This document shows positions 21,289 through 39,031 of a DNA stretch of 64,000 nt, piece after piece (position 1 is the stretch's first letter; each line of letters begins with the position of its first letter). Position numbers and translations under genes: made by a program. The DNA lies in the NCBI RefSeq assembly GCF_018424605.1, contig NZ_QTKT01000010.1:62001-126000 (forward strand), in the 5' to 3' direction. The notes beneath the pieces are model-generated. The model was not told where the DNA came from. It worked only from the letters and a program-made list of their open reading frames with translations, and did no database searches. Source of the DNA: Marinobacter lipolyticus. Lineage in GTDB: Bacteria; Pseudomonadota; Gammaproteobacteria; Pseudomonadales; Oleiphilaceae.

Positions 21289-23442
21289 ATGACACTGATT
21301 AGCGATTCCATGAATCTGACCAGCAAAGAACGAGGCTGGTTACCCTGGTGGGGGACGACGGGCAAACTCCGGATGGGGTGGTCCTGCTTCGTTAACCGCC
21401 GGATGTACAGCACCAACGAACAGATCTTCGAAAGCATCGCGCGCACCCGGCGGGAGGCGCTGATTGGCTGGGCCGAGCATAAGTGGTCGTTTCTGCAGTC
21501 CCTGGCGGAGCGTATGGATTCGGTCAGTGCAGACAGCCTGGACGATCTTCTCCAGGCTTCGTCCGGCCGCCTGCGGGAAATCTCGGAGCTGCTGGTGGTG
21601 AATGACGAGGGCAAGGTGCTCGCCTCCACGGCCGGGCAGCGTGTAGGTACACAGGACCTGCCAGCTATGGCGGTCAAACGTGGCCTGGCCTCTCCGCTCT
21701 TGCACGGCCCCTATAAAGATCCGGTTACCCGCCAGTTGGGGCGAACCACGTCCCGCTTTCACGACGATGTCACGCTGATGTTCTACCAGCCGGTGGTGCT
21801 GGAAGGCGGCAAGGCGGCGGTGTGTGCGCGGGTGCCCAATGACGTACTCAGCGACCTGATCCAGCGCGAAGCCGGCCATATTTTCGAAGAGTCCGGTGAT
21901 AATTACCTGTTCATGGTGGAGAGCCGTTTTGATTCTTCCATACTGCCAGGGACCGCGCTGTCACGATCCCGCTTTGAAGATGCCACTTTCAGCCACGGCG
22001 ACAATCTGAAGGACGGCATCCGCACCGGGTTCGGAACAGTGGGAATCCGCGATCACACCGAATTCGAAATCCGGTTTACCGACCCGGCGACCGGGCAACT
22101 GCATCCCGGTGTGCGTGAGACCATTGCCCGGGGTGAAAACCTCTATGTTAAATACCCGGGATACTCGGATTACCGCCACATACCGGTGATCGGCAAGGGT
22201 GTGACCTTCCAGATGCCGGGCTCCCCGGACCGCTGGGGCATGATGTGCGAGGGGGACCTGGAAGAGGTTTACCGCCGCCGTTCGGTTTCCTACCGCGTGT
22301 CCGTGCGGCTGGCGCTGCTGGTGCTGTTGCTGTGGGGCGTCAATCTGTCCATGGCCTGGAGCGGCGTGCCATTGTGGCTGGAGGGCGCCACCACCGCGCT
22401 GGCAGCGTTGCTGATGGTGTGGCTGTTTCGCGCCACCACGGCAAAACCGCTGGCCACCAACCTGGCCACCATGGCCGACGTTATCCGTAACATTGCCGAG
22501 GGTGGCGGTAATCTGCGCCAGAGGATGGATCTGTCGCGAATGCGGCGTGACGAAACCGGCGATCTGGCCCGATGGACCAACAGTTTTATCGACAGTCTCG
22601 ATGGCATGGTGGGCCAGGTCATTTCCCTGGCCCGGGATTCCGGTGTCGCCAGTGAGCATCTGATGGCTCAGAACCGGCTGGCGGATGAGCGCATCCGGGC
22701 GGTGTTGACTGACATTTCCGAGATGCTCGAAGGCGCCAACCTGCAGGAAAATGAAATCAGTAATGCCTCGACAACGGCTCAGGAAATGCGGGCAGGCATG
22801 GAAGAGGTGGTTACCCGCTCGCGGGAGCAGTTTGCCCGGGTCAGTCAGGAAACTCAGGGTATCCGTGACGTGATTAACCGGTCGGCCGAGAGTATTCGGG
22901 CGGCGAACGAGCGCACCGAGGAAATCAGTAAAACGGCGCTGGTGATCAACGATATCGCGGCGCAAACCAATCTGCTGGCGTTGAACGCCGCCATTGAAGC
23001 GGCGCGTGCCGGTGAGTCGGGTCGCGGCTTTGCCGTGGTGGCGGATGAGGTGCGCAATTTGGCGGGCAGGACCGCCAGTGCGACCGAAGAGATCGGTGAG
23101 CGGTTGCAACGGGTGCAGGAGGAGACGCGCCGCGCCGTCGCCACGATGGAAGACGGCATGTCAGAAATGGAGGCGCGGCTGCAGAAGGCCGAGGCGGCAG
23201 CGGATGATAACTCGGCGCTGCACCATATGGTGGAGAAATTGTTCCGGGCCATCACTGGCATTGCCATCACCAACCGCCAGCAAAGCAGCCAGACGTCAGG
23301 AGTGGCGGAGAGCGCGGCAGTCATGAACCGGGTAATCGAGGAACTCACCGGCAGTTCCGAGCAGACCCGGGTCGCTGCCCGCAAACTGCAGCGCCTGACC
23401 GGCCAGTTCCAGGTTTCAGGTGAGTCTCACCAGGTTCGTTAA
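21289..23442 (+). CDS. Methyl-accepting chemotaxis protein with unusual topology
   Basis: Chemoreceptor that signals through CheA/CheW. The start at 21289 follows AGAAGGA and gives 717 aa. About 335 residues of sensor region come first, including Cache-like [15 protein letters not shown] (100-114), with no N-terminal membrane segment visible. Two membrane segments then lie close together (about 338-357 and 366-381), followed by a HAMP-like stretch and a complete signalling domain with the hairpin tip around [20 protein letters not shown]. This arrangement would put both sensor and signalling parts in the cytoplasm. No CheB/CheR-binding pentapeptide is seen. Ligand unknown. Confidence 0.9.
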
Positions 23443-24809
23443 GACGGGCGTCGACTGGCCACCAGGGCCAGCAATACACTTACCACAGCCGAGCAAACCA
23501 GTGCGCCAAGGAACGGTGCAAGGGTTGGAATGGCGCCGGGGAAGCTGGCGGCGTGAAGCCCTGCGCTCAGCGAACCGGCACTGATCCACCCTGGCAGAAT
23601 GGCACCCAGCAGGCCGGCGAGGCCGCCGCCAACGGCGGCGATAGTCGACATCCGCTGCCAGAGCCCCATCAGAACCGGGATCACCGCGGTGGCGCATAGC
23701 AGGTCCGCGATCAGGAACAGCCTGAGCACAGAGATGCCCTGCAGCGCGACCAGCACCACGGGAATCATCAGTAGTACGGTAAGCCAGCGGGCAGAGGTGA
23801 GTGACATCCCGGCTTTTTCAGTCACCGCGAGGGAGGCGAGGGCGTTCTGCAGGGTGTCGACTGACGAGGCCACCAGTGTCAGTGCCAGTACCAGAGCGGG
23901 AATGGTCAGCCACGCCGGCGCACCGGCGAGCATGGCGAAGAAGGGTATCGGGGGCGAGCCCAGATCGGTCCCGCTCATGGCGGCGGCAATCCCCAGTGAG
24001 CCCACCAGGGCGACAGCGGCAATGGTGATGATGCCGCCGAGAAAGGCGCCTCGCTGCAGTGCAGAGGCGTCCCGCGCGGACCACAGTCGTTGCCAGTAGC
24101 CCTGGTGGAACAGATTGGCGGCCGTCACGGCAATCACCAGTGTGAGGGCCACACTCAGCGCACTGCCAACGGGCGTGTTGGCTGCATGCTCAATGCTGAT
24201 CTCTGGCAGGCGCTGGGTGGCCACCACGCCGACCATCACCAGCAATGCGATCAGCAGGAACGCCTGCCACTGGTCTGTGATCAAGCTGGCGCGGAGACCG
24301 CCCCAGGCGGTGTAGATAAGCGTGGCGATGGCAATACCCACCACCACCAGATTGCCGTTAATGGTTGACAGCAGTGAGGTGATGGCACCGATGGCGGTCA
24401 GCTCGGCGGTCAGGAAGCAGAGCATATAGAGAACCGAGATAACGGATACGTAACGGCGAACGGCGTTTCCGTAGCAGGCCTGGGCGAATTCACCAATGCT
24501 GCGGCCCCGGGGAAGCAAGCGACGAATCGCCGGCCCGCAGGCGGCAAAGACAATGAAGGGCAGGGCGGCGCCAACAGCGTACCCCGCCAATGCCAGCGGG
24601 CCCACCAGTGCGCCGACTTCCGGCGGCGCGAACAGAATCCACCCTCCCATGCCGGACGCCAGAAAGCTGAGCCCCAGTGCTGTGGCACCCTGGCTGTTGC
24701 GCGCGGTGACGAAATCGTCGAGGCCGCCGTCTGCCAGCCTTGCCCGCACGCCAAGCCAGGTAAACAGTATAAGGGCGACGGCCAGAGCAGCCGCAGTGGT
24801 GTAGAACAT
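23439..24809 (-). CDS. Sodium:solute symporter family permease
   Basis: Inner-membrane secondary transporter of the SSS type, with a substrate I cannot assign. The ATG at 24809 ([13 protein letters not shown]) follows GCGGAG and gives 456 aa. About 12 hydrophobic segments are seen. The run [23 protein letters not shown] matches the conserved start of the family core, and [19 protein letters not shown] is the typical sodium-site region; [15 protein letters not shown] fits the later signature. It overlaps the chemoreceptor gene by four bases at the 3' end. Confidence 0.85.
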
Positions 24810-25004
24810 GGTGGTTCGCTCCGCAGGTGAGAAGTGCGAGATGGTGCCACATTCCGCGGCGGGCGGCGAGAGTGCTGGGCTAGAGTGCTCGTTGGGCAGT
24901 TGCGCACCCAATTTGACGAGCATCAAAGCAGAGTCCGGCCTATGATTTACTGTGGGTTCTCAGGAAAAAGAGCCATCACCGATGGCCATGGCGGGAGGCG
25001 CATG

Positions 25005-25325
25005 ATGAATAACCGACAATCCGAGTTGGAAACCCTGCGAGCGGATCTGAAAGCCAGGTTGTCACGCTATGAGGCGCATCAGCACCGCGAGGACGGCGCT
25101 CTGGAGAAGGATTTCGAAGAGCAGGCGGTGCAGACCCAGAACGACGAAGTGGTGGACTCCCTGGAAACCGAAACGCGCGCGGAGCTGATACAGATTGAAC
25201 ATGCCCTGGAACGCATCCGTCATGGTGTGGGCGAGGAGTGTGAGGGCTGTGGCGAGGAGATTGATCCGCGACGGCTTCAGGTGTTGCCGTACACCACCGT
25301 CTGCGTGGCGTGTGCAGAGGACTGA
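25005..25325 (+). CDS. DksA/TraR-family C4 zinc-finger protein
   Basis: Small protein related to DksA and TraR, which act in the secondary channel of RNA polymerase. The second of two adjacent ATGs (25005) is better spaced from GGGAGG and gives 106 aa. An N-terminal coiled coil of about 70 residues is rich in Glu, Gln and Arg. The four-cysteine finger is CEGC followed after 18 residues by CVAC. The DxxDxA tip motif of true DksA is not evident, so its effect on polymerase is uncertain. Its TGA is directly followed by the GTG of the next gene, suggesting coupled translation. Confidence 0.8.
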   Translation: MNNRQSELETLRADLKARLSRYEAHQHREDGALEKDFEEQAVQTQNDEVVDSLETETRAELIQIEHALERIRHGVGEECEGCGEEIDPRRLQVLPYTTVCVACAED

Positions 25326-26786
25326 GTGGCACTGACCGAACGGGATAATCGGAAAAAAGGATTGCCCAAGAGTCAGCTGGCGGGCTTGCTACTGGGTCCG
25401 GTGTTCCTGTTGCTTACACTGGTGCTGCCGGCCCCGGAGGGTATGAGTGATGCCGGCTGGGCAGCGGCGGGGCTGATGCTGCTGATGGCCACCTGGTGGT
25501 CCACAGAGGCGATACCGATTCCGTCCACAGCGCTGCTGCCCATCGTGCTGGTGCCGGCGCTGGGGCTGGGCACGGCTGCCGAAGCGACGGCGCCTTACGC
25601 CCATCCGATCATCTTCCTGTTTCTCGGAGGCTTCACCCTGGGGCTGGCGATGCAACGCTGGGACCTTCACCGCAGAATCGCACTGCTGACGTTGAGGTCG
25701 GTGGGTGACCAGCCGAAACGCCAGATTGCCGGGTTCATGATCGCCACGGCGTTCCTCAGTATGTGGGTGAGTAACACCGCAACCTCCATCATGATGTTGC
25801 CCATCGGTTTGTCGGTGATCGGAATGATGGGCGGCGAGAACTCCGATGGTCAGCGACGATATGCCACGGCGCTGTTGCTGGCGATTGCCTATTCCGCAAG
25901 CATCGGCGGCATTGCCACCCTCATTGGCACGCCCCCGAATGCTCTGCTGGCGGCCTATCTCAATGAGAGTCAGGGCATCTCCATCGGGTTTGCCCAGTGG
26001 ATGCTGATTGGCGTTCCGGTCACCCTCGGGATGCTGGCTTTGACCTGGTGGTGGTTGACCAGAACGGATTTTGGGCTCTCTGGTCAGGGCGACAGCGACG
26101 CCCTGATCCGCAGCGAACTTGCGGCCTTGGGCCCATTGAAGAAAGGCGAGAAGCTGGTCGCGGCGGTTTTCGTGACGACAGCGGCCGCGTGGATTTTCCG
26201 ACCCCTGTTGTCGGGCACGCTGATGCCCTGGCTCAGCGATACCGGGATTGCCATCGCTGCAGCTGTGGCCATGTTCCTGATTCCGGTCAACGCGAAGGAG
26301 CGGACGTTCTTGCTGGACTGGGAGACCGCCCGGGGTATTCCCTGGGGGGTGCTGCTGTTGTTCGGTGGCGGCCTTGCCATGGCCGGGGTCATCAGCAGTT
26401 CGGGGCTGGCGGAATGGATTGCCGAAAGCCTGAGCGTGGCGGGTCATCTGCCGGTTGTTGTGATGATGGTGCTGGTTGCCGGCGTGATCATATTTCTGAC
26501 CGAAGTGACCAGTAATACCGCCACTGCCGCGGCGTTCCTGCCGTTACTCGGTGCCCTGGCGATGTCCCAGGACGTTTCACCCCTTCTGCTCACGGTGCCT
26601 GCAGCCATTGCCGCCAGTTGTGCGTTCATGATGCCGGTGGCCACTCCACCCAACGCCATTGTATTTTCCAGTGGCCACATGAAAATTCAGGACATGATCC
26701 GCGCGGGGTTCGCCCTCAACCTGATGGGCATCGTCGTGGTCACGCTCGCCAGTTACTTTCTGCTCGGGTTGGTCTTCACGCTTTAG
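25326..26786 (+). CDS. DASS (SLC13) family anion:sodium symporter
   Basis: Inner-membrane transporter for di- or tricarboxylates or sulfate, driven by sodium. It has 486 aa and starts at a GTG immediately after the preceding stop, with AGAGGA as ribosome-binding site. About 11-12 hydrophobic segments. The two family Ser-Asn-Thr motifs are present: SNTATSIMMLP and TSNTATAAAFLP. GTPPNALLAAYL and ATPPNAIVFSSG are the matching halves of the inverted repeat. The substrate cannot be set from sequence. Coupled to the DksA-like gene. Confidence 0.88.
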   Translation: MALTERDNRKKGLPKSQLAGLLLGPVFLLLTLVLPAPEGMSDAGWAAAGLMLLMATWWSTEAIPIPSTALLPIVLVPALGLGTAAEATAPYAHPIIFLFLGGFTLGLAMQRWDLHRRIALLTLRSVGDQPKRQIAGFMIATAFLSMWVSNTATSIMMLPIGLSVIGMMGGENSDGQRRYATALLLAIAYSASIGGIATLIGTPPNALLAAYLNESQGISIGFAQWMLIGVPVTLGMLALTWWWLTRTDFGLSGQGDSDALIRSELAALGPLKKGEKLVAAVFVTTAAAWIFRPLLSGTLMPWLSDTGIAIAAAVAMFLIPVNAKERTFLLDWETARGIPWGVLLLFGGGLAMAGVISSSGLAEWIAESLSVAGHLPVVVMMVLVAGVIIFLTEVTSNTATAAAFLPLLGALAMSQDVSPLLLTVPAAIAASCAFMMPVATPPNAIVFSSGHMKIQDMIRAGFALNLMGIVVVTLASYFLLGLVFTL

Positions 26787-27015
26787 AAACCGCTTCTTTC
26801 CGCTAAAACCGCGGGACGCCATTGACGTAACCGGCGCTCCGGTCTCGCCTTGAACCAGTTCTCAAAACCATGACGTCAGGCCTCTTCTGCAGCGACAGAT
26901 TTGAGGCACAGTTATCTTTAAGGCCCAGGGCTTTTCGGTATCTTACCGTAACAACATGTAACGCAAGAACGCGTGCGCAAGACCATGACTAATAATAACA
27001 GGGACTTCTTCTGAC
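26787..27015. other. Upstream region of the C39-peptidase cluster
   Basis: 229 bases without a gene. A small hairpin CGGTA-TCT-TACCG sits at 26936-26948. No confident promoter hexamers and no T-run terminator for the preceding transporter gene are seen. This is the most likely site of the promoter for the envelope cluster that follows. Confidence 0.4.
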
Positions 27016-27816
27016 ATGCTGCTGGTGCTGGCCGGATCCATTCTTACTTTCACCATGGTGCAGGAAGCCACCGTGGTGGAGCCGTTCGACCGGGGAGCAG
27101 TGGTCATCGAGCAGGACATCGATAGCGGTCCGGTCGAACTTCGGACCGATGTGAGCATCGAGCCGCTGGTTGAGCAGAAATTCCGCAATATCGTCCGTCA
27201 GGCCTATGACTACAGCTGTGGCAGCGCCGCACTGACCACCGTTCTGAATCATTATCTGGGGCGAACGCTCAACGAACGTCAGGTGATGGAAGGTCTGCTG
27301 CATTACGGCGAAAGTGAGCGAATTGTCCAGCGGCGGGCCTTCTCCATGCTTGATATGAAGCGTCTGGTGACCGCGCTGGGATACCCCTCCGGTGGTTTCC
27401 GTGCCTCCATTGAAGATCTGATCGATCTTGATCACCCCGCCATCGTTCCGATTGAGCATGCCGGCTTCAAGCACTTCGTGGTGCTTCGGGCGATCAGGGA
27501 CGGACGTGTTTATCTGGCGGACCCGGCCGTCGGGAATATTTCCTTCACGCTTGCCCAGTTCGAGGAGAAGTGGGACGACAACGTGCTCTTTATCGTTTTT
27601 CCGGGGAGCGACAAGCCACTGGATTACCTCGAGCTCAAGGAAGAGGACCTGCGGTTTGTTGACGACCAGACCATGACCCTGCTGGCCCTTCAACAGGTCC
27701 CGGAGTTTCATGAGTCGACGGCCCGGCGTATCCAGAACCTGCTTGAACGCCAGAAAAACAACCCGGATGGCAGTGTCGAGAACACACGCAAGCAGCTTCA
27801 CTACCGCCGAAATTAA
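27016..27816 (+). CDS. C39-type cysteine peptidase, exported, FapD-like
   Basis: Papain-like peptidase of the C39 (double-glycine) family, without the ABC transporter that bacteriocin C39 enzymes carry. It has 266 aa. The catalytic set looks complete: Gln62 and Cys68 in RQAYDYSCGSAAL, His153 in AGFKHFVVLRA and Asp169 in YLADPAVG. The N-terminus is short and hydrophobic (MLLVLAGSILTFTM), a weak signal peptide with no basic residues; an upstream stop excludes a longer frame. Stand-alone C39 peptidases of this kind include FapD of the Pseudomonas functional amyloid system. First gene of the cluster that continues with two outer-membrane barrels and a lipoprotein. Confidence 0.85.
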   Translation: MLLVLAGSILTFTMVQEATVVEPFDRGAVVIEQDIDSGPVELRTDVSIEPLVEQKFRNIVRQAYDYSCGSAALTTVLNHYLGRTLNERQVMEGLLHYGESERIVQRRAFSMLDMKRLVTALGYPSGGFRASIEDLIDLDHPAIVPIEHAGFKHFVVLRAIRDGRVYLADPAVGNISFTLAQFEEKWDDNVLFIVFPGSDKPLDYLELKEEDLRFVDDQTMTLLALQQVPEFHESTARRIQNLLERQKNNPDGSVENTRKQLHYRRN

Positions 27817-27875
27817 TGGCCCGGACGCAACCGCCGGGGATCAGGAATACTACAATTAGAATTAAGGGAGTCAGG

Positions 27876-28886
27876 ATGAATCGTTGGTTCACGCGAGGTT
27901 TTATCCTTTGTTCGATAGCCGGTCTGATGCCCGGGATGGCAATCGCCCAGGACGGCAATGTCGATCAGGCGAGGGAAGCGCTGGCAAAGCAGGAAGGGGA
28001 TGAGGATTCCACCCGTCAGCTGGAGGAAGTGTTCCAGGCTTCGGAGAAGAACTATTCTCTGCAGCAGAAGGGATCCCACGCCCTCAATTACTCCTTCGAT
28101 TACACCTACACCGCCGACCAGCGCCTGGATTTGGCCATCAGCGATGGCTCGGTGCGCAATCTCGACGTCGTGCCCTCGGCAACCCACAGTTTCACCAACG
28201 CCTTTTCCTACGATTACGGCCTGCTGAATAACCTGACCGTGGGTACGCGGGTTCCCCTGGTGGTGAAATACGACACCCAGGACGAACTCAACGTGTCTGA
28301 TTTCGGGGATATTTCCTTTACCGCACGCTGGCAGCCGTTCGCCTATGTGCCGGGTAAGATGTCCACCACCTTTTTTGGCACCCTGACGTCGAAAACCGGT
28401 GTCAGCCCCTACGAGATCGACATCAACGAACAGCTCTCCACCGGCAGCGGCTATTACTCCATCGGTGGGGGCGCCAGCCTGTCCAAGGTTCTGGATCCGG
28501 TGGTGGTGTTCGGCTCCGTGAGCGCCACCTATAACGTGACCGAGTCGGGCCTTGAGCAGGTCCGTGGTGCCCGCTTGCTGGAGAAAGTGGAGCCGGGCTT
28601 TGGTCTGTCCGGATCAGCCGGTTTTGCCTATTCACTGTCCTACGATATTTCCCTGAGCGTTTCGGCCCAGCTGAGCTACAGCGATGAAACGGTGCTGACG
28701 TTCTCCAATGGCGACCAGGCGGTGGCCCAGGACCAGATGACCGGTTTTCTCAGTTTCTCCCTCGGCACCCGGGTGAGCGATACCACCATCGTAAATACCA
28801 GTCTGGGTGTTGGTCTGACCGAGGACGCTCCGGACTTCTCTCTGGGAGTGTCTCTGCCCATTAATTTCTCCGGCCTCAAAGAGTGA
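27876..28886 (+). CDS. Outer-membrane beta-barrel, FapF / phenol-MetA-deg-like
   Basis: Predicted outer-membrane protein of 336 aa. Start at 27876 after GGGAGTCAGG. Signal peptide with cleavage after AIA (residue 24). The mature N-terminus (about 25-75) is charged and helical with coiled-coil character, followed by alternating beta strands from about residue 82 to a terminal strand ending LPINFSGLKE. A short coiled coil plus barrel is the layout of FapF, the amyloid exporter partnered with FapD, and the upstream neighbour is FapD-like. Homology to FapF is my inference from layout and context, not an alignment. It could instead be a general transporter of the phenol-degradation MetA family. 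Confidence 0.7.
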   Translation: MNRWFTRGFILCSIAGLMPGMAIAQDGNVDQAREALAKQEGDEDSTRQLEEVFQASEKNYSLQQKGSHALNYSFDYTYTADQRLDLAISDGSVRNLDVVPSATHSFTNAFSYDYGLLNNLTVGTRVPLVVKYDTQDELNVSDFGDISFTARWQPFAYVPGKMSTTFFGTLTSKTGVSPYEIDINEQLSTGSGYYSIGGGASLSKVLDPVVVFGSVSATYNVTESGLEQVRGARLLEKVEPGFGLSGSAGFAYSLSYDISLSVSAQLSYSDETVLTFSNGDQAVAQDQMTGFLSFSLGTRVSDTTIVNTSLGVGLTEDAPDFSLGVSLPINFSGLKE

Positions 28887-28923
28887 TTGGAGCCGCTGAC
28901 GTTTTACGGGAAGGGAAGACTCC

Positions 28924-30549
28924 ATGGGAATGACCAGCCACAAGAAGCAGATTCTCGGGGCCGTGATCGCCGCGACCATCTCGTGTGGTGCCGAGGCCCA
29001 GCTCGCGCAGAACCTGACGATCCATCCTAAGGCTCTGGCACTTGGTAACGCGGTGACCGCTGATCCCCCCGGGATTATGGCGATCCATTACAACCCGGCG
29101 GGCCTGACCAAACTGGAAGGGCGTCAGCTTGAGGTAAACCTGATGAGCGTTTACCTCGACATCGACGCCGATTTCTACGCCGATGAAGATTACGAGATCT
29201 TTGGTATCAAGGGCCTGGAAACCGACCCGCTGACTGGTAAGCAGCGGGATCCGGTTGCCAACAAGCACAGTCACACCAACAACGTGGCTCTGTATGTGCC
29301 GGGATACGGTATCCTGCGCGCGCCCCCCGGCCCGGCCGTTGCGCCTTCCGCCGGTATCAGCATCAACCCTCCGGGCTCCAAGTTGACCTTCGGCAACGCC
29401 TTTTACCTGCCTTTGGCGGCGGGCTTCTACCGCGATAAAGATGATCCGGGCCGCTACATGCCGCAGGCGACTGCGCTGCAGAGAACCACATACCTTTCGC
29501 CGACCGTTGGTTATGAAATCAACGACGAGTGGTCGGTCGGGGCCGGTATCCATTTGTCCCATATGGGGATCGCGGCGGATCAGTACATGCGCGCGCCCAA
29601 CATGCTGCTGGGGGTGGCCGAGGTCCTGCAGGACGCCTTTAACTGTGAGAGCGGCGATGAACCGCTGCAGCCCTGGCTCGCTCTGTGTGGCGGTAACGTG
29701 GGGCCCTGGGATGATATCGGTGCACTGAGTATCAATGTTCAGGAAACTCTGTCACCCACCTATACCCTCGGTGTGATGTGGGAGCCCACCGACTGGTTCA
29801 CCTGGGGCGCGAGCTACACCTCGGAAGCCGACATGAACCTGAAGGGCACTTTCGAGATCGAGTACACCGACGACTGGTCGGGCTTCTGGCAAAGCGTGAA
29901 CGGTTCCGTGCTGGGTGCGATCACATCCGCCATTCTCAGCCTGCCATCCGGTGCGCCCAGGGAAGCCGGCAACGTCAGCATGGATCTGGTCTATCCGCAG
30001 CATTTCCAGACCGGCATCAGCGTGGACGTACATGAAAAGCTGACCGTGAATGTGGACGTGGGCTGGACCGATTACAAACAGTGGGATGCCTTTGTGTTCC
30101 GGTTCGACCGTAACCTCGAATTTCTTAATGCGGCCCGGATTCTGTCGCCGGACAACGCCACGCCCAGCACTCTGCGGTTGCCGCTGGGCTTTACCGATCA
30201 GTGGAACTGGGCCTTCGGCCTGGAGTTCCATGCCTCGTCACGGCTTGATCTCAGGGCCGGCGTGGAGATTCGCGACTCGGTGATTCCGGACGATCAGCGC
30301 TCGATCATGGCCCCGTTTGGCGGCGCCAACCTCTACAGTGTCGGTATGGGGTATAAGTGGGATAAGGACACTGAGATCGATATGAACCTCAGCTACCTGC
30401 AATCCATTGAAACCGTTCCCGCCAATGGCAGTTGTAACCTGAACTGTGACAATATAACGAACATCATCTACAACCCATACGCCGGGCTGGACGTAAAGAC
30501 CTCGCTGAGGGTGGTGATGGCCGGGCTCAGTTTCCGGACCAAATTCTGA
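28924..30549 (+). CDS. OmpP1/FadL-family outer-membrane protein
   Basis: Predicted outer-membrane barrel of 541 aa with signal peptide (MGMTSHKKQILG...AEA, cleavage near residue 25) and AAGGGAAG before the ATG. The mature start, with ALALGNAVTADPPG and IHYNPAGLTKL, is the FadL-type plug region, and the C-terminus ends in Phe (LSFRTKF). FadL proteins import hydrophobic compounds; here the gene sits between a FapF-like barrel and a lipoprotein gene, so a structural or export-linked role is possible. Two cysteine pairs (NCESG...LCGG and SCNLNC) lie in regions likely to be surface loops. Substrate unknown. Confidence 0.82.
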   Translation: MGMTSHKKQILGAVIAATISCGAEAQLAQNLTIHPKALALGNAVTADPPGIMAIHYNPAGLTKLEGRQLEVNLMSVYLDIDADFYADEDYEIFGIKGLETDPLTGKQRDPVANKHSHTNNVALYVPGYGILRAPPGPAVAPSAGISINPPGSKLTFGNAFYLPLAAGFYRDKDDPGRYMPQATALQRTTYLSPTVGYEINDEWSVGAGIHLSHMGIAADQYMRAPNMLLGVAEVLQDAFNCESGDEPLQPWLALCGGNVGPWDDIGALSINVQETLSPTYTLGVMWEPTDWFTWGASYTSEADMNLKGTFEIEYTDDWSGFWQSVNGSVLGAITSAILSLPSGAPREAGNVSMDLVYPQHFQTGISVDVHEKLTVNVDVGWTDYKQWDAFVFRFDRNLEFLNAARILSPDNATPSTLRLPLGFTDQWNWAFGLEFHASSRLDLRAGVEIRDSVIPDDQRSIMAPFGGANLYSVGMGYKWDKDTEIDMNLSYLQSIETVPANGSCNLNCDNITNIIYNPYAGLDVKTSLRVVMAGLSFRTKF

Positions 30550-30587
30550 GGTCACGACGCGACCGGATTGCGTCAGTCAGGTAGTGA

Positions 30588-31661
30588 ATGCATATGCGGA
30601 GCAAGCGATTCGGAAGCCAGGTTGTATTGCTGGCGCTGTCAGGGAGTCTGCTGGTAGGGTGCCAGAGCGCCGGTGGCCCGTCTTCCGGAACGCAGGAATA
30701 CTTTACCTGGGTGGATGACCAGGGGCGTGTGCAGCAGTCGCCAATCATCCGCGAGCCGGAAGAGGCGGCGCGGGAGGAGACGGCCTCTGCCGAGAGCAAC
30801 GACGGCGTGCCTGCCGGAACCGTTGCGTCGTCGGCGCAATCCGGTTCGCCCACGGAACAGGCGGCGGATTCGGAGTTCAACCTCGAAAACTATCCCGATG
30901 GTGACCAGCTTGAGCGGGATGGTTACATCCGTCCGGGCGAACCCCAGCCCTATTTCAGTTGGCGCGATGCCGAAGGAAACATACGGGTCAGTTATTACCA
31001 GCCCGATACCCGTTCCGCCGTGGAAAAGGGTCGTATAAAGCCTCCTGTCCAGCTGACCCCGGCCAGTATCTACCAGCAGGGGGGCGTGGCGGAGCCAGAA
31101 GCCTCTCGCGAGGGTGGCGACCCCGACGCGTTTGCCGTTCTGGGTATTGAGCAAGCGGAGCAGAGCTACCTTGAGCAATGGGCGGCGCGCTGTTGTACCG
31201 AACTGGAAACCGGCGCTGTTGAACAAAGGCACAGTGGGCGTGAATTCGGTCTGACACTCGACGAGGCGTCGCCCGTTCATCGTTTCGCCTCCGGTGACAG
31301 CCCATATGTGCTGGTGCAGTTGCCAGCAGGCGAGACCGAAACAGGGTTTATTTTGAGGTTGCGATCATTTGCCAGGGACGGGCTCTTCGTGCCCTCGGTG
31401 GCGTTCCTCGATCGTGACATGCGCCCGGCGCGGATCGTGACGGATCTGGTGGCCGAATTTACCCCGGAGAGTTGGCACCGTCGTGGGTTCCTCGAGGCGT
31501 TCATACCGGTTTTTCCCGAGCATGGCGAACGCTGGCTGGTGATTTTTACCCGGGACGAAGACGTCCGGGGGCAGACCGTGATTGAAGATGAGCGGGGCCC
31601 CCGGGCGATTTCTCATGTTACCCGGGGGGAGTTGAGCCTGACCGAGCTCGACGAGCGTTGA
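30588..31661 (+). CDS. MalM-like lipoprotein with tandem WxDxxG motifs
   Basis: Predicted envelope lipoprotein of 357 aa: lipobox LLVGC with acylated Cys25. Two similar segments follow, YFTWVDDQGRVQ (38-49) and PYFSWRDAEGNIR (121-133), like the DUF4124-type motif. The C-terminal 160 residues, from ARCCTELE (200-207) through DEASPVHRFASGDSPYVLV, resemble MalM, the periplasmic protein of the maltose operon, but no maltose gene is near. Fourth gene of the envelope cluster; it may anchor or assemble the cluster's product. The function is not known. Its stop is two bases from that of the convergent deacetylase gene. Confidence 0.75.
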   Translation: MHMRSKRFGSQVVLLALSGSLLVGCQSAGGPSSGTQEYFTWVDDQGRVQQSPIIREPEEAAREETASAESNDGVPAGTVASSAQSGSPTEQAADSEFNLENYPDGDQLERDGYIRPGEPQPYFSWRDAEGNIRVSYYQPDTRSAVEKGRIKPPVQLTPASIYQQGGVAEPEASREGGDPDAFAVLGIEQAEQSYLEQWAARCCTELETGAVEQRHSGREFGLTLDEASPVHRFASGDSPYVLVQLPAGETETGFILRLRSFARDGLFVPSVAFLDRDMRPARIVTDLVAEFTPESWHRRGFLEAFIPVFPEHGERWLVIFTRDEDVRGQTVIEDERGPRAISHVTRGELSLTELDER

Positions 31662-31663
31662 TC

Positions 31664-32695
31664 TCAGTCCTCGGGCTGTTGCAGGTCCAGCCACTGCTGT
31701 GACAGCCAGTAGTATCGCCCGTCACCGGCAGGGTGTGTGCAGTTATAGCGAAACCGGCGGCTGTCGAAACCGTCGGGAGCCTGGATGCGCACGATGCCGT
31801 TGTCCCCTTCTTCGATCTCGATGCGACCCTGACCGGAGGCGAAACAGCTTAATTGGCTGACGTTGAGGGTCTCCGGCAGTTTGAATTCGAGTGTTGGCGG
31901 GTTGTCAGCCGAGACCCCGGTTGGTAAGTCGTTTGCGTTCACCGGGAGTGCCTTGCTCAGCAATTTGTCTTTCAGGCTGCCCAGCTGGCCGTAGGCATTG
32001 GCCATCGGGAAGCGGGGCAGGCGGGTTTTGCCGGAGGTGGCTCCCACGGCTCCGGACTGCTGGCCATAGCCAATCCAGTTCCTTGTCGAGAGCTTCTCTT
32101 CCAATGCGGCATCGAATTCGCCATAGGGGTAAGCAAACATCGGCACATCGATGCCAAGGCGGTCCTGCAGGATCGCCTGAGCACGGTCAAGGCTGTTGTC
32201 GGCACGTTGCTCCCAGTCGGCCTGGCTTTCGTCGATTCGGCGGGCGAGGTGGCCATGGTCATGGCTGTGATTCGCAATGGTCACCAGTTCACTCTGGTTC
32301 AGCTCTTTGAGTTGATCCCAGGTCATGTATCCCTTGCCGCCAACGGCATCGGTATTCACGAAGATGGTGTAGGGATAGCCCCGTTGCTCGAGCATGGGCG
32401 CTGCCTGTTGATACACCGACTCGTAGGCATCGTCGAAGGTAATGGCGACCTGTTGGCGGGTGGCGAGCTCCCCGTTCAACGCCGCTTCCGTGGCCGCCTG
32501 CAAGGCCACCACCTCCAGTCCCTCGCTGGCAATCATTTCCAGCTGGCCCTCGAACAGGGAGATTGAGGTGCTGGTTGCCGGTGGGGTAGCGTCACTGATG
32601 TGATGGTACTGAAGTACGACCAGATCCGCTCGCGCGCTGAGCGCCGCGACGGCACACAACAGTGCGGATGCAACACGTAAGGTTTGCCTTGCCAT
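31664..32695 (-). CDS. Secreted polysaccharide deacetylase (NodB domain)
   Basis: Predicted to remove N-acetyl groups from an envelope or extracellular polysaccharide. The ATG at 32695 follows GAGGAC and gives 343 aa. A signal peptide ends near ALSARA (about residue 23). The NodB metal-site motifs are TFDDAYESV and HSHDHGHLAR, and the YPYGEFD motif is also present. The domain spans about 25-235. The C-terminal 100 residues have no catalytic motif and may bind sugar. Relationship to PgaB/IcaB types is possible but not shown. Lies just after the DnaJ-domain gene on the same strand. Confidence 0.85.
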   Translation of the reverse strand: MARQTLRVASALLCAVAALSARADLVVLQYHHISDATPPATSTSISLFEGQLEMIASEGLEVVALQAATEAALNGELATRQQVAITFDDAYESVYQQAAPMLEQRGYPYTIFVNTDAVGGKGYMTWDQLKELNQSELVTIANHSHDHGHLARRIDESQADWEQRADNSLDRAQAILQDRLGIDVPMFAYPYGEFDAALEEKLSTRNWIGYGQQSGAVGATSGKTRLPRFPMANAYGQLGSLKDKLLSKALPVNANDLPTGVSADNPPTLEFKLPETLNVSQLSCFASGQGRIEIEEGDNGIVRIQAPDGFDSRRFRYNCTHPAGDGRYYWLSQQWLDLQQPED

Positions 32696-32714
32696 CAATG
32701 GGTCCTCGATCTGT

Positions 32715-33383
32715 TTATTGATAATGCGCCTTGAGTACGGCGAACGCCTGATTCAGGTTCTGAATGCCTTGGGTGTCGCCCCCGCGGTCGGGGTGGGCTC
32801 GCATGACCGCTCGTCTGAACCGCTGTTTCACCACGCTGAAACTGTCAGGAATTTTCTCCAGTCCCAATACGTTTGCCGCCTCGTGGACCTCCTGTGTTTC
32901 GGGGCGACGATGCTGCCGGCCATTCCAGAAATCGTCCATCATCGACTGGATGTGTTCGTCAGACAGCTGGTACTGAGACAGATCCAGATAAAAGGTGCGC
33001 AGTTCGTCAACCTCGCCCGCCAGCCCCGCGCCGGCCACCACGGCGCAGTTTTGGAGACGCAGGCTCAAGGGAGAGATGCTGACGGTCTCTCCCTGGCCGG
33101 CAAGCTGATCTCGCAGGCGGTACAGGGTATGGAAGAGCAGAAAATGCACCGGATAGAGCTTCTCGGGTTCACCGAATGCCACGTCGCCGATCAGCTCCCA
33201 GGGTTGCCCCTGCAGGCGCTTGATGAGGGCAAGTTCGCTCATACCCTCCGGGCATTGTCGCAGTTCGTGCTCTACTGCCACCAGCAGGTGCTGGATGTGG
33301 AGATCCAGCACTGGATTGCCGTCTGTCTGTGCAGGGTCCGGGTGTCCGGTCTGGGCCCGGCCCGTGTGAATGGGTTTTTTCAT
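32715..33383 (-). CDS. DnaJ-related protein with C-terminal J-domain
   Basis: Probable DnaK co-chaperone. It has 222 aa. The N-terminal 150 residues match the DNA-J-related family (LYPVHFLLFHTLYRL, LRTFYLDLSQYQLS), and a J-domain occupies the last 60 residues with the essential HPD tripeptide in RAHPDRGGD. This reversed layout, J-domain last, is known for the family in Pseudomonas and Marinobacter relatives. Ribosome-binding site is weak. The downstream deacetylase gene on the same strand starts 20 bases after its stop, so the pair may be cotranscribed. Confidence 0.85.
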   Translation of the reverse strand: MKKPIHTGRAQTGHPDPAQTDGNPVLDLHIQHLLVAVEHELRQCPEGMSELALIKRLQGQPWELIGDVAFGEPEKLYPVHFLLFHTLYRLRDQLAGQGETVSISPLSLRLQNCAVVAGAGLAGEVDELRTFYLDLSQYQLSDEHIQSMMDDFWNGRQHRRPETQEVHEAANVLGLEKIPDSFSVVKQRFRRAVMRAHPDRGGDTQGIQNLNQAFAVLKAHYQ

Positions 33384-33410
33384 GTCGCCATGTTAGGGGA
33401 CTGTGATCGG

Positions 33411-34055
33411 TTAGGAAAGGGTGTTGAGCCTGCCGAGCCCGCCCAGAAACAGTGTTGACGCGAAATGAGCAGCTGCCTCTGCTTCCTGCTCGCCATTGTC
33501 GGGCGCGGCGTGGGCCCGTCGGGCAACACGCAGGCTCATTTCATAAGCGGCGCCAAAAAACGCGGCGCACAGGTAGTCCTGATCAACGTTCGGCAGCAAG
33601 CCCCTGTCCACGGCATCCCGCACGTCTTCTTCCAGCGAAAGCATTGCCAGCCCAAGAATGTCCGAGCCAAACAGTTCGCGAATAGCGTGGTCATTACGGT
33701 GGGCGAGTTCGTACACCAGCGGATCGTTTGCGGTGGCACGAAACAGCGCCAGGTAAGCAGACTGGATAAAGTCTTCCCCGGTACCGGCGGTCTTGCGGTA
33801 GTGGGTCAGGTTGAGATTGAGATGGTTCAGGAAATCGGTGAGCAGGGCCGCAAAGATGTCCTGCTTGCTCGAGAAGTAGTTGTAGAAGGTTCCGGCGGCA
33901 AGGCCGGTTTTTCTCACGATATCGCGGATCGTTGAGTTGTCGTAGCCTTTCTCCCGGAAGCATTCCCGGGCGGCTACCAGAATGGCGTTGCGGTTGCGTA
34001 TCCGGTTGGATTCCCGCTTGCCCAGAGCCTCATCCGTGTGCTGTAACATATCCAT
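33411..34055 (-). CDS. TetR-family transcriptional regulator
   Basis: Predicted dimeric repressor. The ATG at 34055 (MDMLQHTDEALG) follows CAGGATA and gives 214 aa; a GTG ten codons upstream is less likely. The helix-turn-helix is at about 20-65, with CFREKGYDNSTIRDI and GLAAGTFYNYFSSKQDI. The C-terminal ligand domain has no recognisable specificity. It is divergent from ttcA and lies upstream of the DnaJ-related gene on the same strand. Target and ligand unknown. Confidence 0.88.
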   Translation of the reverse strand: MDMLQHTDEALGKRESNRIRNRNAILVAARECFREKGYDNSTIRDIVRKTGLAAGTFYNYFSSKQDIFAALLTDFLNHLNLNLTHYRKTAGTGEDFIQSAYLALFRATANDPLVYELAHRNDHAIRELFGSDILGLAMLSLEEDVRDAVDRGLLPNVDQDYLCAAFFGAAYEMSLRVARRAHAAPDNGEQEAEAAAHFASTLFLGGLGRLNTLS

Positions 34056-34088
34056 GTCGCTATCCTGTCCCTGCGTGTTTCTCACGCG

Positions 34089-34094
34089 TATAAT
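34089..34094 (+). promoter_or_regulatory. Possible -10 element for ttcA
   Basis: A perfect TATAAT lies 36 bases before the ttcA start. The -35 hexamer at the matching distance is poor (CTGTCC), so only the -10 is supported. Confidence 0.4.
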
Positions 34095-34129
34095 CCTGTG
34101 CCCACCAATCCTGTGAACGTAGTGTTTTT

Positions 34130-35059
34130 ATGTCCGATGCATTGACCGCCAATCCAGCCTTCTCTCAGCCTTCCGATTCACCGGCATCCGATGCCGATCG
34201 CAAGAAGAAGCTGGAACTTAACAAACTGCAGAAGCGTCTGCGCCGCGAAGTAGGTCAGGCCATTGCCGATTATTCGATGATTGAAGCCGGTGACAAGGTC
34301 ATGTGCTGCCTCAGTGGCGGCAAGGATTCCTACGCCATGCTGGATATCCTGCTGAATCTCCAGAAGAGTGCGCCGGTATCCTTCGAGCTGATTGCTGTGA
34401 ACCTTGACCAGAAACAGCCCGGCTTTCCTGAAGAGGTACTCCCCCGTTACCTGGAAACCATGGGGATCGAGTACCACATCATCGAAAAGGACACCTACAG
34501 TATTGTTAAGGAAAAAGTGCCGGAAGGGAAGACCACCTGTGGTCTTTGTTCGCGCCTACGTCGTGGAATTCTCTATAATTTTGCGGAAGAGCACGGTGTC
34601 ACCAAGATTGCCCTCGGTCATCACCGGGACGACCTGCTGGAAACCCTGTTCCTGAACATGTTCTACGGCGGCAAGCTCAAGTCCATGCCGCCGGTGCTGC
34701 ACAGCGATGACGGGCGCAACACGGTCATCCGGCCGCTGGCGTTCAGCCGCGAAAAAGACATTGCCCGTTACGCCGCGCTGCGGGAATTCCCGATCATTCC
34801 GTGCAATCTCTGTGGGTCCCAGGAAAATCTGCAGCGCCAGGTCATCAAGGAGATGTTTCAGTCCTGGGACAAACAGCACCCCGGCCGGCTGGAAACCATG
34901 TTCAGGGCACTGCGCAATGTCGAGCCGTCGCATCTGGCCGACAACGCGCTTTATGATTTCCGAGAGGGCAAGCGCATCGGCGGTGCGTCGGCATCGTCTG
35001 TCGAAATGTCGGAACCGGAATCAGTAGAGTTTGGACGCCTGGACGTTCTCAATATCTGA
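34130..35059 (+). CDS. ttcA: tRNA 2-thiocytidine biosynthesis protein TtcA
   Basis: Makes 2-thiocytidine at position 32 of certain tRNAs, using ATP and an Fe-S cluster. It has 309 aa. The PP-loop ATP pyrophosphatase motif SGGKDS is at about 64-69. Cysteines that hold the cluster are seen in TTCGLCSR and in IPCNLCG. The segment [13 protein letters not shown] is typical. The N-terminal 30 residues are low complexity and the C-terminal tail after FREGKR is variable, as in relatives. Divergent from the TetR gene and convergent with the TauE/SafE-like gene, five bases apart. Confidence 0.96.
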
Positions 35060-35064
35060 CGGGC

Positions 35065-35766
35065 TCAGCCGGGGTGTCCGCCATGGAGCACCAGGCTGAG
35101 GGGCAGGGTCCAGAGGCCGAAGGCAATCAGCAGGATGCCGGTCAGCTGCCGGATGCGTTTTTGCCCCTGAAGTTTGCGTACCCAGGTTGCCGCGTACCCG
35201 GTGGCCAGCATCGAAGGCAGCGTGCCCAGGCCGAAAAAAGCCATGGTTGCTGCGGCGCTGCCCACTGAAGGTTGAAGCGCGGCCCAGCCAAGCGTGCTGT
35301 AGACCAGACCACAGGGCAGCCAGCCCCACAACCCGCCCAGCGCAACGGCCTGCCAGCCGTTGCGAACCGGCAGGAAGCGCCGGGTCAGGGGCGACAGTCT
35401 CGCCCACACCGGTGCACCGATGCGCTCGATATGCCGGATACCCTGCCACCACTGCGCCATGGACAGTCCCATCAGGATCAACAGAATACCCGCCAGAGTG
35501 CGTAAAACCGGGGCCAGCTCGTTCCATTGCGCGGCGGCGCTGGTGCTGAGCACCGCCACCAGTGTGGCGATCAGCGTATAGCTGCCGATACGGCCGCCAT
35601 TGAAGGCGAGCAGCATGAGGGTCTGGCGAATTCGAAATCCCCTGCCCACCGGCAGCGCCATTGACAGCGATGCACTGATGCCACCGCACATGCCCAGGCA
35701 GTGAGTGCTGCCCAGCAAGCCAATCAGAAACGCACTGGAATAACTGAGGTAGAGGCCGTCGGTCAT
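35065..35766 (-). CDS. TauE/SafE-like membrane protein of the cbb3 locus
   Basis: Polytopic inner-membrane protein of 233 aa with about six hydrophobic segments. The first carries STHCLGMCGGIS, a His/Cys-rich motif that could bind copper or another metal. WGWLPCGLVYS adds another Cys in a membrane segment. Its start overlaps the ccoS stop by one base (TGATG), so it is the last gene of the ccoG-H-I-S unit. Placement suggests help with metal supply or maturation of cbb3 oxidase, as proposed for homologues at this position in Pseudomonas. The exact role is not known. Confidence 0.8.
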   Translation of the reverse strand: MTDGLYLSYSSAFLIGLLGSTHCLGMCGGISASLSMALPVGRGFRIRQTLMLLAFNGGRIGSYTLIATLVAVLSTSAAAQWNELAPVLRTLAGILLILMGLSMAQWWQGIRHIERIGAPVWARLSPLTRRFLPVRNGWQAVALGGLWGWLPCGLVYSTLGWAALQPSVGSAAATMAFFGLGTLPSMLATGYAATWVRKLQGQKRIRQLTGILLIAFGLWTLPLSLVLHGGHPG

Positions 35767-35993
35767 CAGTGCCGGGGGTTCTCATCGGTGTCGGTCGGAG
35801 TGTCGTCGCGTTCGCGCTCGGCGCTGGTTTTGGCGTCGTCCGGGATCATGTCCTTGTCGTCGTCAAACAGTATGCGGTGGGCCGGGCCTTCGAGATCATC
35901 GTATTGGCCGTTCTTGACTGCCCAGGAGAACAGCACGACGCCCAATGCCACGAGAATCAGCATGACTGGGACCAGGATCATTACAATTTGCAC
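35766..35993 (-). CDS. ccoS: cbb3 oxidase assembly protein CcoS
   Basis: Small single-span membrane protein needed to insert cofactors into cbb3 oxidase. It has 75 aa from a GTG start with GAGG upstream. One membrane segment (about 3-25) is followed by the family motif SWAVKNGQYDDLEGPAHRIL. The acidic, Asp/Glu-rich tail is longer than in some relatives but not unusual. Lies 39 bases after ccoI. Confidence 0.92.
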   Translation of the reverse strand: MQIVMILVPVMLILVALGVVLFSWAVKNGQYDDLEGPAHRILFDDDKDMIPDDAKTSAERERDDTPTDTDENPRH

Positions 35994-36032
35994 GGTGAAC
36001 CTCGGAAAACAAAGGGTGACGCTTCTACGGTA

Positions 36033-38480: not shown

Positions 38481-38484
38481 TTTT

Positions 38485-38988: not shown

Positions 38989-39031
38989 AACAGCAATCTC
39001 TTGAACAGGGTGGCGCCGCGTAGCCAACGGG

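What the first reader, a model, noticed from the sequence alone, without database searches (positions are those of the whole stretch)
27016..31661. Four-gene envelope cluster: C39 peptidase, FapF-like barrel, FadL-like barrel, MalM-like lipoprotein
Seen: a stand-alone C39 peptidase with a complete Gln62/Cys68/His153/Asp169 set, then a barrel with a helical N-terminus, then a FadL-type barrel, then a lipoprotein, all same strand with gaps of 59, 37 and 38 bases. Known: FapD (C39) and FapF (coiled coil plus barrel) work in Pseudomonas amyloid export. Inference: this is a related export or surface-fibre system with extra FadL and MalM-like parts. No FapB/FapC-like repeat protein is in the window, so the substrate would be elsewhere or of a different kind. 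Similar families occur, from memory, in loci named fil in Acinetobacter; this is unchecked.
Basis: partly seen in the sequence, partly recalled or inferred. Interest (0 to 1): 0.72.

Follow-up and report, generated by a model that had tools for sequence, protein, structure and literature searches.

The report
Fil system exporting leader-tagged filament proteins
Four neighbouring genes look like machinery that trims and exports a family of surface proteins whose own genes are scattered around the genome, which would give a job to an unexplained 'pilus-like' fibre structure and suggest what the peptidase of related amyloid systems cuts.

Summary
The four genes are filB-filC-filD plus a MalM-type lipoprotein, an order conserved in relatives. 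FilC is a FapF-type channel (Z 28.2 over 263 residues).

The likely substrates lie elsewhere: nine proteins of this genome carry a Sec-type signal peptide followed by a double-glycine-type leader, L/M/I(-12)...L/M(-7)..V/I(-4).G(-2)Q/A(-1). Eight hit DUF6160, the FilA family. Among 293 genomes of the order, DUF6160 occurs in 38 of 40 with fil-type FilC and 1 of 253 without; in the class, 6 of 6 against 0 of 363. Pseudomonas FilA matches one solved structure, 9xfv, an orphan 'bacteria pilus (like)' filament whose first residue falls right after the predicted cut; proteins of the window's family alone reach it only weakly (0.0069).

Best reading: Sec export, leader removal by FilB in the periplasm, export through FilC, polymerisation. 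A similar scheme was proposed for Neisseria nap peptides. FapE-position proteins carry a similar leader in 9 of 9 fap loci read. Cleavage, export and filaments here are inferred.

The parts
27016..27816 (+). filB: stand-alone C39 peptidase, 266 aa, short hydrophobic N-terminus, catalytic set Q62/C68/H153/D169
   Evidence: NF050078 1.7e-85; FapD model 9.2e-37; PCAT peptidase domains in PDB, best 8.2e-6; conservation in 77 FilB
27876..28886 (+). filC: FapF-like outer-membrane channel with N-terminal helix before a beta-barrel
   Evidence: NF050079 2.9e-105; FapF model 7.6e-20; FapF 5o65/5o67/5o68, about 8e-15; 5o65 Z 28.2, rmsd 2.1, 263 aligned
28924..30549 (+). filD: FadL/OmpP1/TodX-family barrel
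   Evidence: PF03349 5.9e-69; NF050080 1.5e-163; PorV_fam 5.3e-8
30588..31661 (+). MalM-type putative lipoprotein with weak DUF4124, in the filE position but not shown to be homologous to FilE
   Evidence: PF07148 1.6e-12; PF13511 4.3e-4, below its cut-off; found in 75 of 80 loci; no profile link to FilE

Best explanation
filBCD plus the MalM-type lipoprotein gene is a processing and export machine for Sec-exported proteins that carry a second, double-glycine-type leader. Steps: (1) Sec moves the precursors (DUF6160/FilA-type and similar leader proteins, encoded at scattered sites in this genome) into the periplasm and signal peptidase cuts at the A-x-A site. (2) FilB, a C39 peptidase facing the periplasm, binds the remaining leader of about 16 residues through its hydrophobic positions -12, -7 and -4 and cuts after Gly-Gln (in one of the nine, Gly-Ala). 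(3) The freed, still unfolded protein leaves through FilC, a FapF-type barrel. (4) Outside, FilA-type subunits polymerise into a pilus-like filament of the kind solved as PDB 9xfv; longer leader proteins may decorate or anchor it. FilD and the lipoprotein are accessory; loci with only filB and filC exist. Shown here: gene identity and order, the channel fold, the leader pattern, co-occurrence with the channel, and homology of Pseudomonas FilA to a solved filament whose chain starts where the leader ends. Inferred: cleavage by FilB, export through FilC, filament formation in this organism, and the roles of FilD and the lipoprotein.
For: Channel: FilC matches FapF by sequence and fold (Z 28.2; best other kinds 23.8 for COG4313 4rl8 and 18.8 for an autotransporter). 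Leader: 9 proteins in this genome at E <= 3.4e-10 with a 40-position signal-plus-leader profile, next hit 0.064 (8 of the 9 were rows of that profile, the ninth, at 3.4e-10, was not). The pattern fits the PCAT consensus L(-12)xxxE(-8)L(-7)xxxxG(-2)G(-1) (PMC6959990, passages) and the -4/-7/-12 groove contacts of LahT (PMC6363468, passages); E(-8) is common only in some groups. In two distant genomes with filB and filC I read 20 of their 26 DUF6160-profile hits; all 20 carry it (19 end Gly-Gln, one Gly-Glu), and in the 13 aligned the information drops after the cut. Co-occurrence: 38 of 40 against 1 of 253 genomes of the order; by genus 20 of 21 against 1 of 97; class 6 of 6 against 0 of 363. 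Two of the 12 sampled genomes of the window's genus lack both; none of the 12 (order) and 34 (class) genomes with only weak, fap-type FilC matches has DUF6160. Neighbourhood: in 74 of 78 named loci with filB a leader gene lies upstream on the same strand; of the 72 found by script 57 lie within 300 bases and 15 within 3 kb. Filament: the profile of 35 Pseudomonas-type FilA finds only 9xfv in PDB (7.5e-14), chain residue 1 at the first position after GQ; entry numbering starts at 38. Precedent: in Neisseria a C39 peptidase and a FapF homologue are proposed to cut (in the periplasm) and secrete double-glycine peptides (PMC11798529, passages).
Against: No experiment shows that FilB cuts these leaders. 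Gly-Gln is not among the classical Gly-Gly/Ala/Ser sites. The site varies: Gly-Arg in the upstream genes of L134 and L148, Ala instead of Gly at -2 in two of four tandem FilA of L229. Four of 78 loci with filB (L202, L206, L207, L208: two Hahella isolates, a Hahella MAG and an unclassified gammaproteobacterial MAG) have no leader gene found upstream. Two genomes have filC but no DUF6160 hit (G058, G145) and one has a weak DUF6160 hit without filC (G057). The filament link is weak for this organism: one window-genome protein alone finds no PDB match; 12 proteins of the window's family give 9xfv only 0.0069, with neither end significant alone; the better value of 7.6e-10 came from a 20-row profile that also held 8 proteins of other families, two of them Pseudomonas FilA. 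The fold match has Z 7.5, below the aligner's trust level. The leader of the 9xfv protein was not seen and its source gene was not found. FilB's N-terminus lacks a positively charged n-region, so its export is plausible, not proven.
Confidence: 0.72

Rival explanations
1. A Fap-type functional-amyloid system: FilC exports intrinsically disordered amyloid repeat proteins, and the DUF6160 proteins are amyloid subunits like FapB/FapC or regulators like FapE.
For: FilB and FilC are homologous to FapD and FapF; FapE-position proteins also carry a leader; a FilA protein is predicted beta-rich.
Against: I noticed no FapB/FapC-type repeats in the leader proteins read (no systematic test); genomes with only fap-type channel matches lack DUF6160; the only PDB relative is a filament entry of 25 chains labelled pilus-like. 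Whether that filament is cross-beta was not visible here.
Confidence: 0.14
2. The cluster is an envelope uptake system for hydrophobic compounds (FadL and COG4313-like channels) with a regulatory peptidase; the leader proteins are unrelated surface proteins that happen to co-occur.
For: FilD is in the FadL/TodX family; FilC also resembles the COG4313 channel 4rl8 (Z 23.8); many of the 80 loci are from Alcanivorax, known to me as hydrocarbon degraders.
Against: A leader gene lies upstream of filB in 74 of 78 named loci with filB; co-occurrence is near complete and includes absence of both in two genomes of the window's genus; filB-filC occurs without filD (L070, L072; L096).
Confidence: 0.06
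3. FilB is cytoplasmic or only a chaperone, and the GQ segment is the binding site of another factor or part of the fold rather than a cleavage site.
For: FilB's signal sequence is atypical; degenerate C39-like domains recruit without cutting in some toxin exporters (PMC6363468, abstract passage).
Against: Catalytic residues are nearly invariant; the leader lies behind a Sec-type signal peptide; the solved filament chain starts at the predicted +1; FapD acts in the periplasm and needs its Cys (PMC5557850, passages).
Confidence: 0.08

Closest known systems
Fil 'putative pilus system' (NCBIfam FilA-FilF; NF050077-NF050081, NF033645; named, as I recall, from Acinetobacter)
   Same: FilB, FilC and FilD homologous and in the same order; FilA-type proteins present in the genome; a locus with four tandem filA then B-C-D-E-F was seen in L229.
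   Different: No filA next to the window's filB (nine leader genes elsewhere); MalM-type lipoprotein instead of a recognisable FilE; no FilF. No paper on FilA-E function appeared in the listings; FilF is a T2SS-dependent lipoprotein in A. baumannii (PMC12802150, passages).
Neisseria nap island (NapP C39 peptidase, NapF FapF homologue, double-glycine peptides NapA-C)
   Same: C39 peptidase plus FapF-type channel acting on leader peptides; periplasmic cleavage and secretion proposed by its authors (PMC11798529, passages).
   Different: Small cationic peptides with Gly-Gly linked to autolysis, not filament-type proteins; no signal peptide is mentioned in that text and a holin-like protein is suggested for the inner membrane; no FadL barrel mentioned in the passages seen. 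I did not compare the proteins themselves.
Fap functional-amyloid system of Pseudomonas (FapA-F)
   Same: C39 peptidase plus FapF channel; a leader-like motif in the FapE-position protein beside FapD.
   Different: Candidates are DUF6160/FilA-type, not FapB/FapC; extra FadL barrel and lipoprotein; scores for FilB and FilC far below the FapD and FapF cut-offs.
Double-glycine leader processing by PCAT/AMS ABC exporters
   Same: C39 homology and catalytic set; leader positions -12, -7, -4, -2.
   Different: No ABC transporter; precursors have a Sec-type signal peptide in front of the leader; -1 is mostly Gln.
PDB 9xfv, 'Pilus-like-alpha ... from a Karst cave', molecule 'bacteria pilus (like)'
   Same: Homologous to Pseudomonas FilA over both ends; chain starts at the predicted mature N-terminus.
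   Different: Source organism and genome context not known here; the window family's proteins reach it only weakly.

Membership tests
Fil putative pilus system | FilB, FilC, FilD homologues in that order on one strand | tested here: met
   E 1.7e-85, 2.9e-105, 1.5e-163; all below the models' curated cut-offs (475, 630, 970 bits)
Fil putative pilus system | FilA-type (DUF6160) protein encoded in the genome | tested here: met
   five FilA-model hits, best 7.8e-10, below cut-off 220 bits; 8 DUF6160 hits, best 2.5e-36
Fil putative pilus system | filA adjacent to filB | tested here: not met
   upstream gene is a DASS symporter; none of the 8 DUF6160 hits lies in the window. In relatives a leader gene is upstream in 74 of 78 loci with filB
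Fil putative pilus system | FilE homologue after filD | tested here: not met
   no FilE model hit (E <= 1) for gene 4; its family profile does not find the FilE of L229
Fil putative pilus system | FilF | tested here: not met
   best E 0.335 in the whole genome
Fap amyloid system | FapF-type barrel preceded by a helix | tested here: met
   the alignment starts at the helix before the barrel (model 50, FapF 88). Strand count and trimer not established
Fap amyloid system | FapD and FapF equivalog scores | tested here: not met
   126.5 bits against 330 (FapD), 71.1 against 700 (FapF)
Fap amyloid system | FapB/FapC amyloid repeat subunits | not tested
   no whole-genome search with FapB/FapC models was made
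PCAT double-glycine exporter | C39 domain fused to an ABC transporter | tested here: not met
   266 aa, C39 domain only
DUF6160 leader proteins as C39 substrates | hydrophobic -12, L/M(-7), V/I(-4), G(-2) behind a Sec-type signal peptide | tested here: met
   7 profile hits not caught by the pattern still carry it. Exceptions: A at -2 in two L229 FilA, F at -4 in L199
DUF6160 leader proteins as C39 substrates | cleavage after position -1 by FilB | not testable with these tools
   indirect: 9xfv chain starts at +1

The most novel reading that the evidence does not exclude
A distinct class of surface-filament pathway: Sec export, then a second double-glycine-type leader (mostly Gly-Gln) removed by a free periplasmic C39 peptidase as the trigger for export through a FapF-type channel and for polymerisation of a pilus not assembled by any pilus route known to me. 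One FilB/FilC pair would serve up to 17 mostly unlinked substrates that share little but the leader, so the leader works as an address tag. FilD would act like the FadL-family PorV of type IX secretion, as an acceptor or anchor. FapD/FapE and the Neisseria nap genes would be branches of the same mechanism.
Probability: 0.42. Interest if true: 0.88.

Novelty: new variant of a known kind. Interest (0 to 1): 0.73.

Why it matters
The Fil genes carry a 'putative pilus' label with no mechanism that I could find, the substrate of FapD was reported as undetermined in 2018 (PMC6173800, passages), DUF6160 has no function, and 9xfv is a filament whose assembly machine is not named in its record title. 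One hypothesis links all four and can be tested with N-terminal mass spectrometry and a FilB Cys mutant. It also gives a leader profile that can list the candidate exported proteins of bacteria with this system.

Tried and rejected
Defence system: no PADLOC hit at E <= 0.01 for the four proteins. Second C39 protein of the genome (L010:11486-12487) as part of the system: it is a PA2778-family protein with TPRs, another kind; set aside although a DUF6160 gene lies about 4 kb away. GQAG DNA pattern in the genome: 10 hits against 5 for the reversed control; of the 6 outside DUF6160 genes, three were read as ORFs that are not leader proteins and three gave no matching ORF. NCBIfam and Pfam at E <= 10 on ten leader proteins: no significant bacteriocin-leader model; one weak, sub-cut-off match to a peptide pheromone model, VP1 (0.02), which I recall to be a double-glycine peptide; not used. 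Promoter and terminator scan: nothing above shuffles. Rfam: no hit in 20000-40000. Foldseek with the FilA model: no match at E <= 0.001; 9xfv appeared only in the second look and in sequence searches. Source gene of 9xfv: 268 genomes of the family of G094 searched with its first 99 residues; 18 had matches, best E 1.3e-5, 50% identity over 38 residues, so not the source. Papers: none describing 9xfv among those listed (0 papers; 15 of 90 listed, one of which mentions CryoSeek in another context); none on FilA-E function among those listed (20 of 165; 36: 2 of 2; 93: 12 of 111). DUF6160: one paper holds the term, listing only. On FapD-type processing, the listings led to the Fap papers and to the Neisseria nap paper, which I had first passed over and read (passages) only on checking this report.

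Rows dropped or chosen before counts: from the pattern lists I dropped 7 and 13 chance ORFs by eye before the logo. The strong/weak FilC split (E below 1e-40 in the order, 1e-50 in the class) was set after seeing a gap in the values. Adjacency: 72 by script, L134 and L148 added after reading them (Gly-Arg sites). The own-genome leader profile held 8 of the 9 proteins found and 5 of the 17 of G429. Fap loci: 9 read of 22 weak FilC places listed; 7 by pattern plus L081 and L084 by eye, where L084 has Gln at -4.
Full report
What is there. Four + strand genes lie at 27016-27816, 27876-28886, 28924-30549 and 30588-31661 with gaps of 59, 37 and 38 bases. They are a C39 peptidase, a barrel without a Pfam match, a FadL/TodX barrel and a MalM-type putative lipoprotein. 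NCBIfam names the first three FilB, FilC and FilD of a 'putative pilus system', with FapD and FapF as more distant matches; all scores lie below the curated cut-offs. Gene 4 has no FilE match, and a profile of its family (75 relatives and the window protein) does not find the FilE of locus L229, whose FilE, FilF and three of four FilA pass the curated cut-offs. FilF is absent from the genome. Q62, C68, H153 and D169 are kept in at least 97% of 77 aligned FilB.

The channel. The window's FilC finds FapF in PDB by sequence (7.5e-15). An AlphaFold model (mean pLDDT 79) matches FapF by Foldseek (first 18 rows) and by VIA-align (5o65 Z 28.2, rmsd 2.1 A, 263 residues, including the helix before the barrel; other kinds follow with COG4313 23.8 and autotransporters 18.8). 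The first 60 residues are low-confidence helix; I did not test for a coiled coil as in FapF.

Conservation. In a public-genome scan 245 relatives of FilC were found and the best 80 kept. filB was found in 78 of the 80 loci, each followed by filC and filD; the MalM-type gene was found in 75 of 80. Some distant loci have filB and filC with no filD or lipoprotein gene found (L070-L072; L096; L104 and L107 too, but these end at or near filC).

The candidate substrates. A FilA-model search of the window's genome gave five hits at scattered places. The two I scanned in Pfam are DUF6160 proteins; in all, the genome has 8 DUF6160 hits. They have a Sec-type signal peptide followed by a segment such as ELQAMDESAMGNVTGQ/AGVTIE. 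Its spacing fits the leader of C39 substrates of ABC exporters: L(-12)xxxE(-8)L(-7)xxxxG(-2)G(-1), with position -4 also in the groove (PMC6959990 and PMC6363468, passages). Here -1 is usually Gln, sometimes Ala or Gly, rarely Glu or Arg. With a 40-position signal-plus-leader profile (20 rows, 8 from this genome) the genome has nine such proteins at E <= 3.4e-10 and then nothing better than 0.064; the ninth was not in the profile. Four of the nine stand in one row (L011: 798, 185, 360 and 401 aa). The same profile finds 17 leader proteins at E <= 8.1e-6 in the distant genome G429 (5 of its rows come from there), and none at E <= 0.006 in two genomes of the window's genus that lack filC (G019, G146) or in G211, which has only a fap-type channel match.

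Is it a leader? In genomes G429 and G541 I read 20 of 26 DUF6160-profile hits; all 20 have the motif (13 by pattern, 7 by eye; 19 Gly-Gln, one Gly-Glu). For the 13 aligned, information is high to -1 (V(-4), G(-2), Q(-1) invariant) and drops from +2 on, as expected if little but the leader is shared. Part of this conservation is built in by the pattern used for selection; positions -15, -10, -8 and the choice of Gln at -1 are not.

Co-occurrence. In 293 genomes of the order, 52 have a FilC-model match: 40 at E < 1e-40 and 12 weaker, which I take as fap-type. DUF6160 is found in 39: 38 of the 40 strong, none of the 12 weak, and one other at 5.6e-5. Fisher 3.5e-44 per genome; by genus 20 of 21 with, 1 of 97 without, 2.1e-20 (related genomes are not independent). 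In 369 genomes of the class, 40 match FilC; 6 strongly, and exactly these 6 have DUF6160 (two of the six were also in the first sample). In the named loci a leader gene lies upstream of filB on the same strand in 74 of 78 (72 by script, 57 of them within 300 bases and 15 within 3 kb; L134 and L148 by reading). The four without are L202, L207, L208 (Hahella) and L206. In the window it is likewise not adjacent.

The filament. The FilA model (P. resinovorans, mean pLDDT 74) had no Foldseek match at E <= 0.001, but the second look put 9xfv_A first (Z 7.5, 36% identity over 100 residues; next 4.5). Sequence supports the kinship for Pseudomonas: the profile of 35 FilA finds only this chain (7.5e-14, both ends matched) and P. 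aeruginosa PA7 FilA alone 2.3e-7. For the window's side it is weaker: a mixed profile of 20 DUF6160 proteins (12 of the window's family, 8 of others, two of them Pseudomonas FilA) gives 7.6e-10 (next 0.69), the 12 of the window's family alone give 0.0069 with 9xfv still the only chain at E <= 1, and one protein alone nothing. Chain residue 1 (Asp-Gly) aligns with the first residue after Gly-Gln and the entry numbers it 38, so the deposited subunit appears to lack a presequence of the expected length. I saw the record title, parts of the chain sequence and alignments; no paper and no coordinates.

Fap and Nap. In nine fap-type loci (of 22 weak FilC places) the gene next to fapD encodes a protein with a signal-peptide-like segment and a motif such as L.D.EL..LRG(R/K/G): 7 by pattern and 2 by eye; two of three tested match the FapE model (8.3e-104 and 7.5e-33), and a fourth weakly (0.007). 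FapD's target was called unclear in 2017, with FapE suspected from missing N-terminal peptides, and undetermined in 2018 (PMC5557850 and PMC6173800, passages). The FapE suspicion is therefore not new. In Neisseria, a C39 peptidase (NapP) and a FapF homologue (NapF) flank genes of double-glycine peptides, and the authors propose cleavage in the periplasm and secretion by the two (PMC11798529, passages). So the idea of a C39 peptidase plus FapF-type channel for leader peptides is in print; what I add is the Fil/DUF6160 set, the Sec signal in front of a Gly-Gln leader, the scattered genes, the genome-wide co-occurrence and the link to a solved filament.

Mechanism. Most likely Sec export, signal-peptide cleavage, FilB cutting after GQ/GA in the periplasm, export through FilC, and polymerisation outside. 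Shown: genes, order, fold, leader pattern, co-occurrence, homology of Pseudomonas FilA to a filament. Inferred: every catalytic and transport step. FilB's hydrophobic N-terminus without basic residues makes its export plausible only; FapD is shown to act in the periplasm (PMC5557850, passages). FilD's similarity to the PorV family (5.3e-8) suggests, weakly, a surface acceptor or anchor; that reading of PorV is from memory.

Novelty. The gene family is named in public models and a related scheme is published for Neisseria, so this is a new variant of a known kind. I did not find the Fil substrate set or the 9xfv link in the listings, which cover open-licence PubMed Central only and show capped lists.

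Noticed in passing
L079, L080, L081, L082, L083, L084, L085, L087, L088 next to fapD: FapE-position proteins in 9 of 9 fap loci read carry a signal-peptide-like segment plus a double-glycine-like motif such as L.D.EL..LRG(R/K/G), a candidate cleavage site for FapD.
   Followed up: partly
L011:4849-10095 (own genome, near a contig end): Row of four leader proteins (798, 185, 360, 401 aa); similar rows are seen in L120 and L121. One leader ends Gly-Ala. Perhaps tip, anchor or large surface subunits.
   Followed up: partly
L089-L103 (genomes G429, G541): Many short proteins (97-246 aa) share little beyond the signal peptide and leader; G429 has 17 by profile. They resemble a dispersed set of secreted peptides.
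   Followed up: partly
L229:14945-16852: Two of four tandem FilA have Ala-Gln instead of Gly-Gln at the predicted cut; they may be uncut variants or show relaxed specificity. L134 and L148 have Gly-Arg.
   Followed up: no
L134:5052-6926: A 624-aa protein whose start looks like TPR repeats sits between the leader gene and filB in this Alcanivorax locus; 15 of 72 loci have a leader-filB gap of 0.3-3 kb.
   Followed up: no
L010:7590-9503: A choice-of-anchor-D/DUF6801 protein lies directly beside a DUF6160 gene on the same strand.
   Followed up: no
L010:11486-12487: Second C39 protein of the genome, a PA2778-family peptidase with TPRs and a lipoprotein-like signal, of unknown substrate.
   Followed up: no
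window:31664-32698: Polysaccharide deacetylase (PgaB-like) convergent with the cluster; also found next to it in genomes of the window's family and in two Hahella loci, L202 and L207.
   Followed up: no
FilA C-termini (A3, A4): Conserved C-terminal ending V/I-W/Y-G-H in most FilA/DUF6160 proteins (W-A-H in 9xfv), possibly a subunit-interface or export motif.
   Followed up: no
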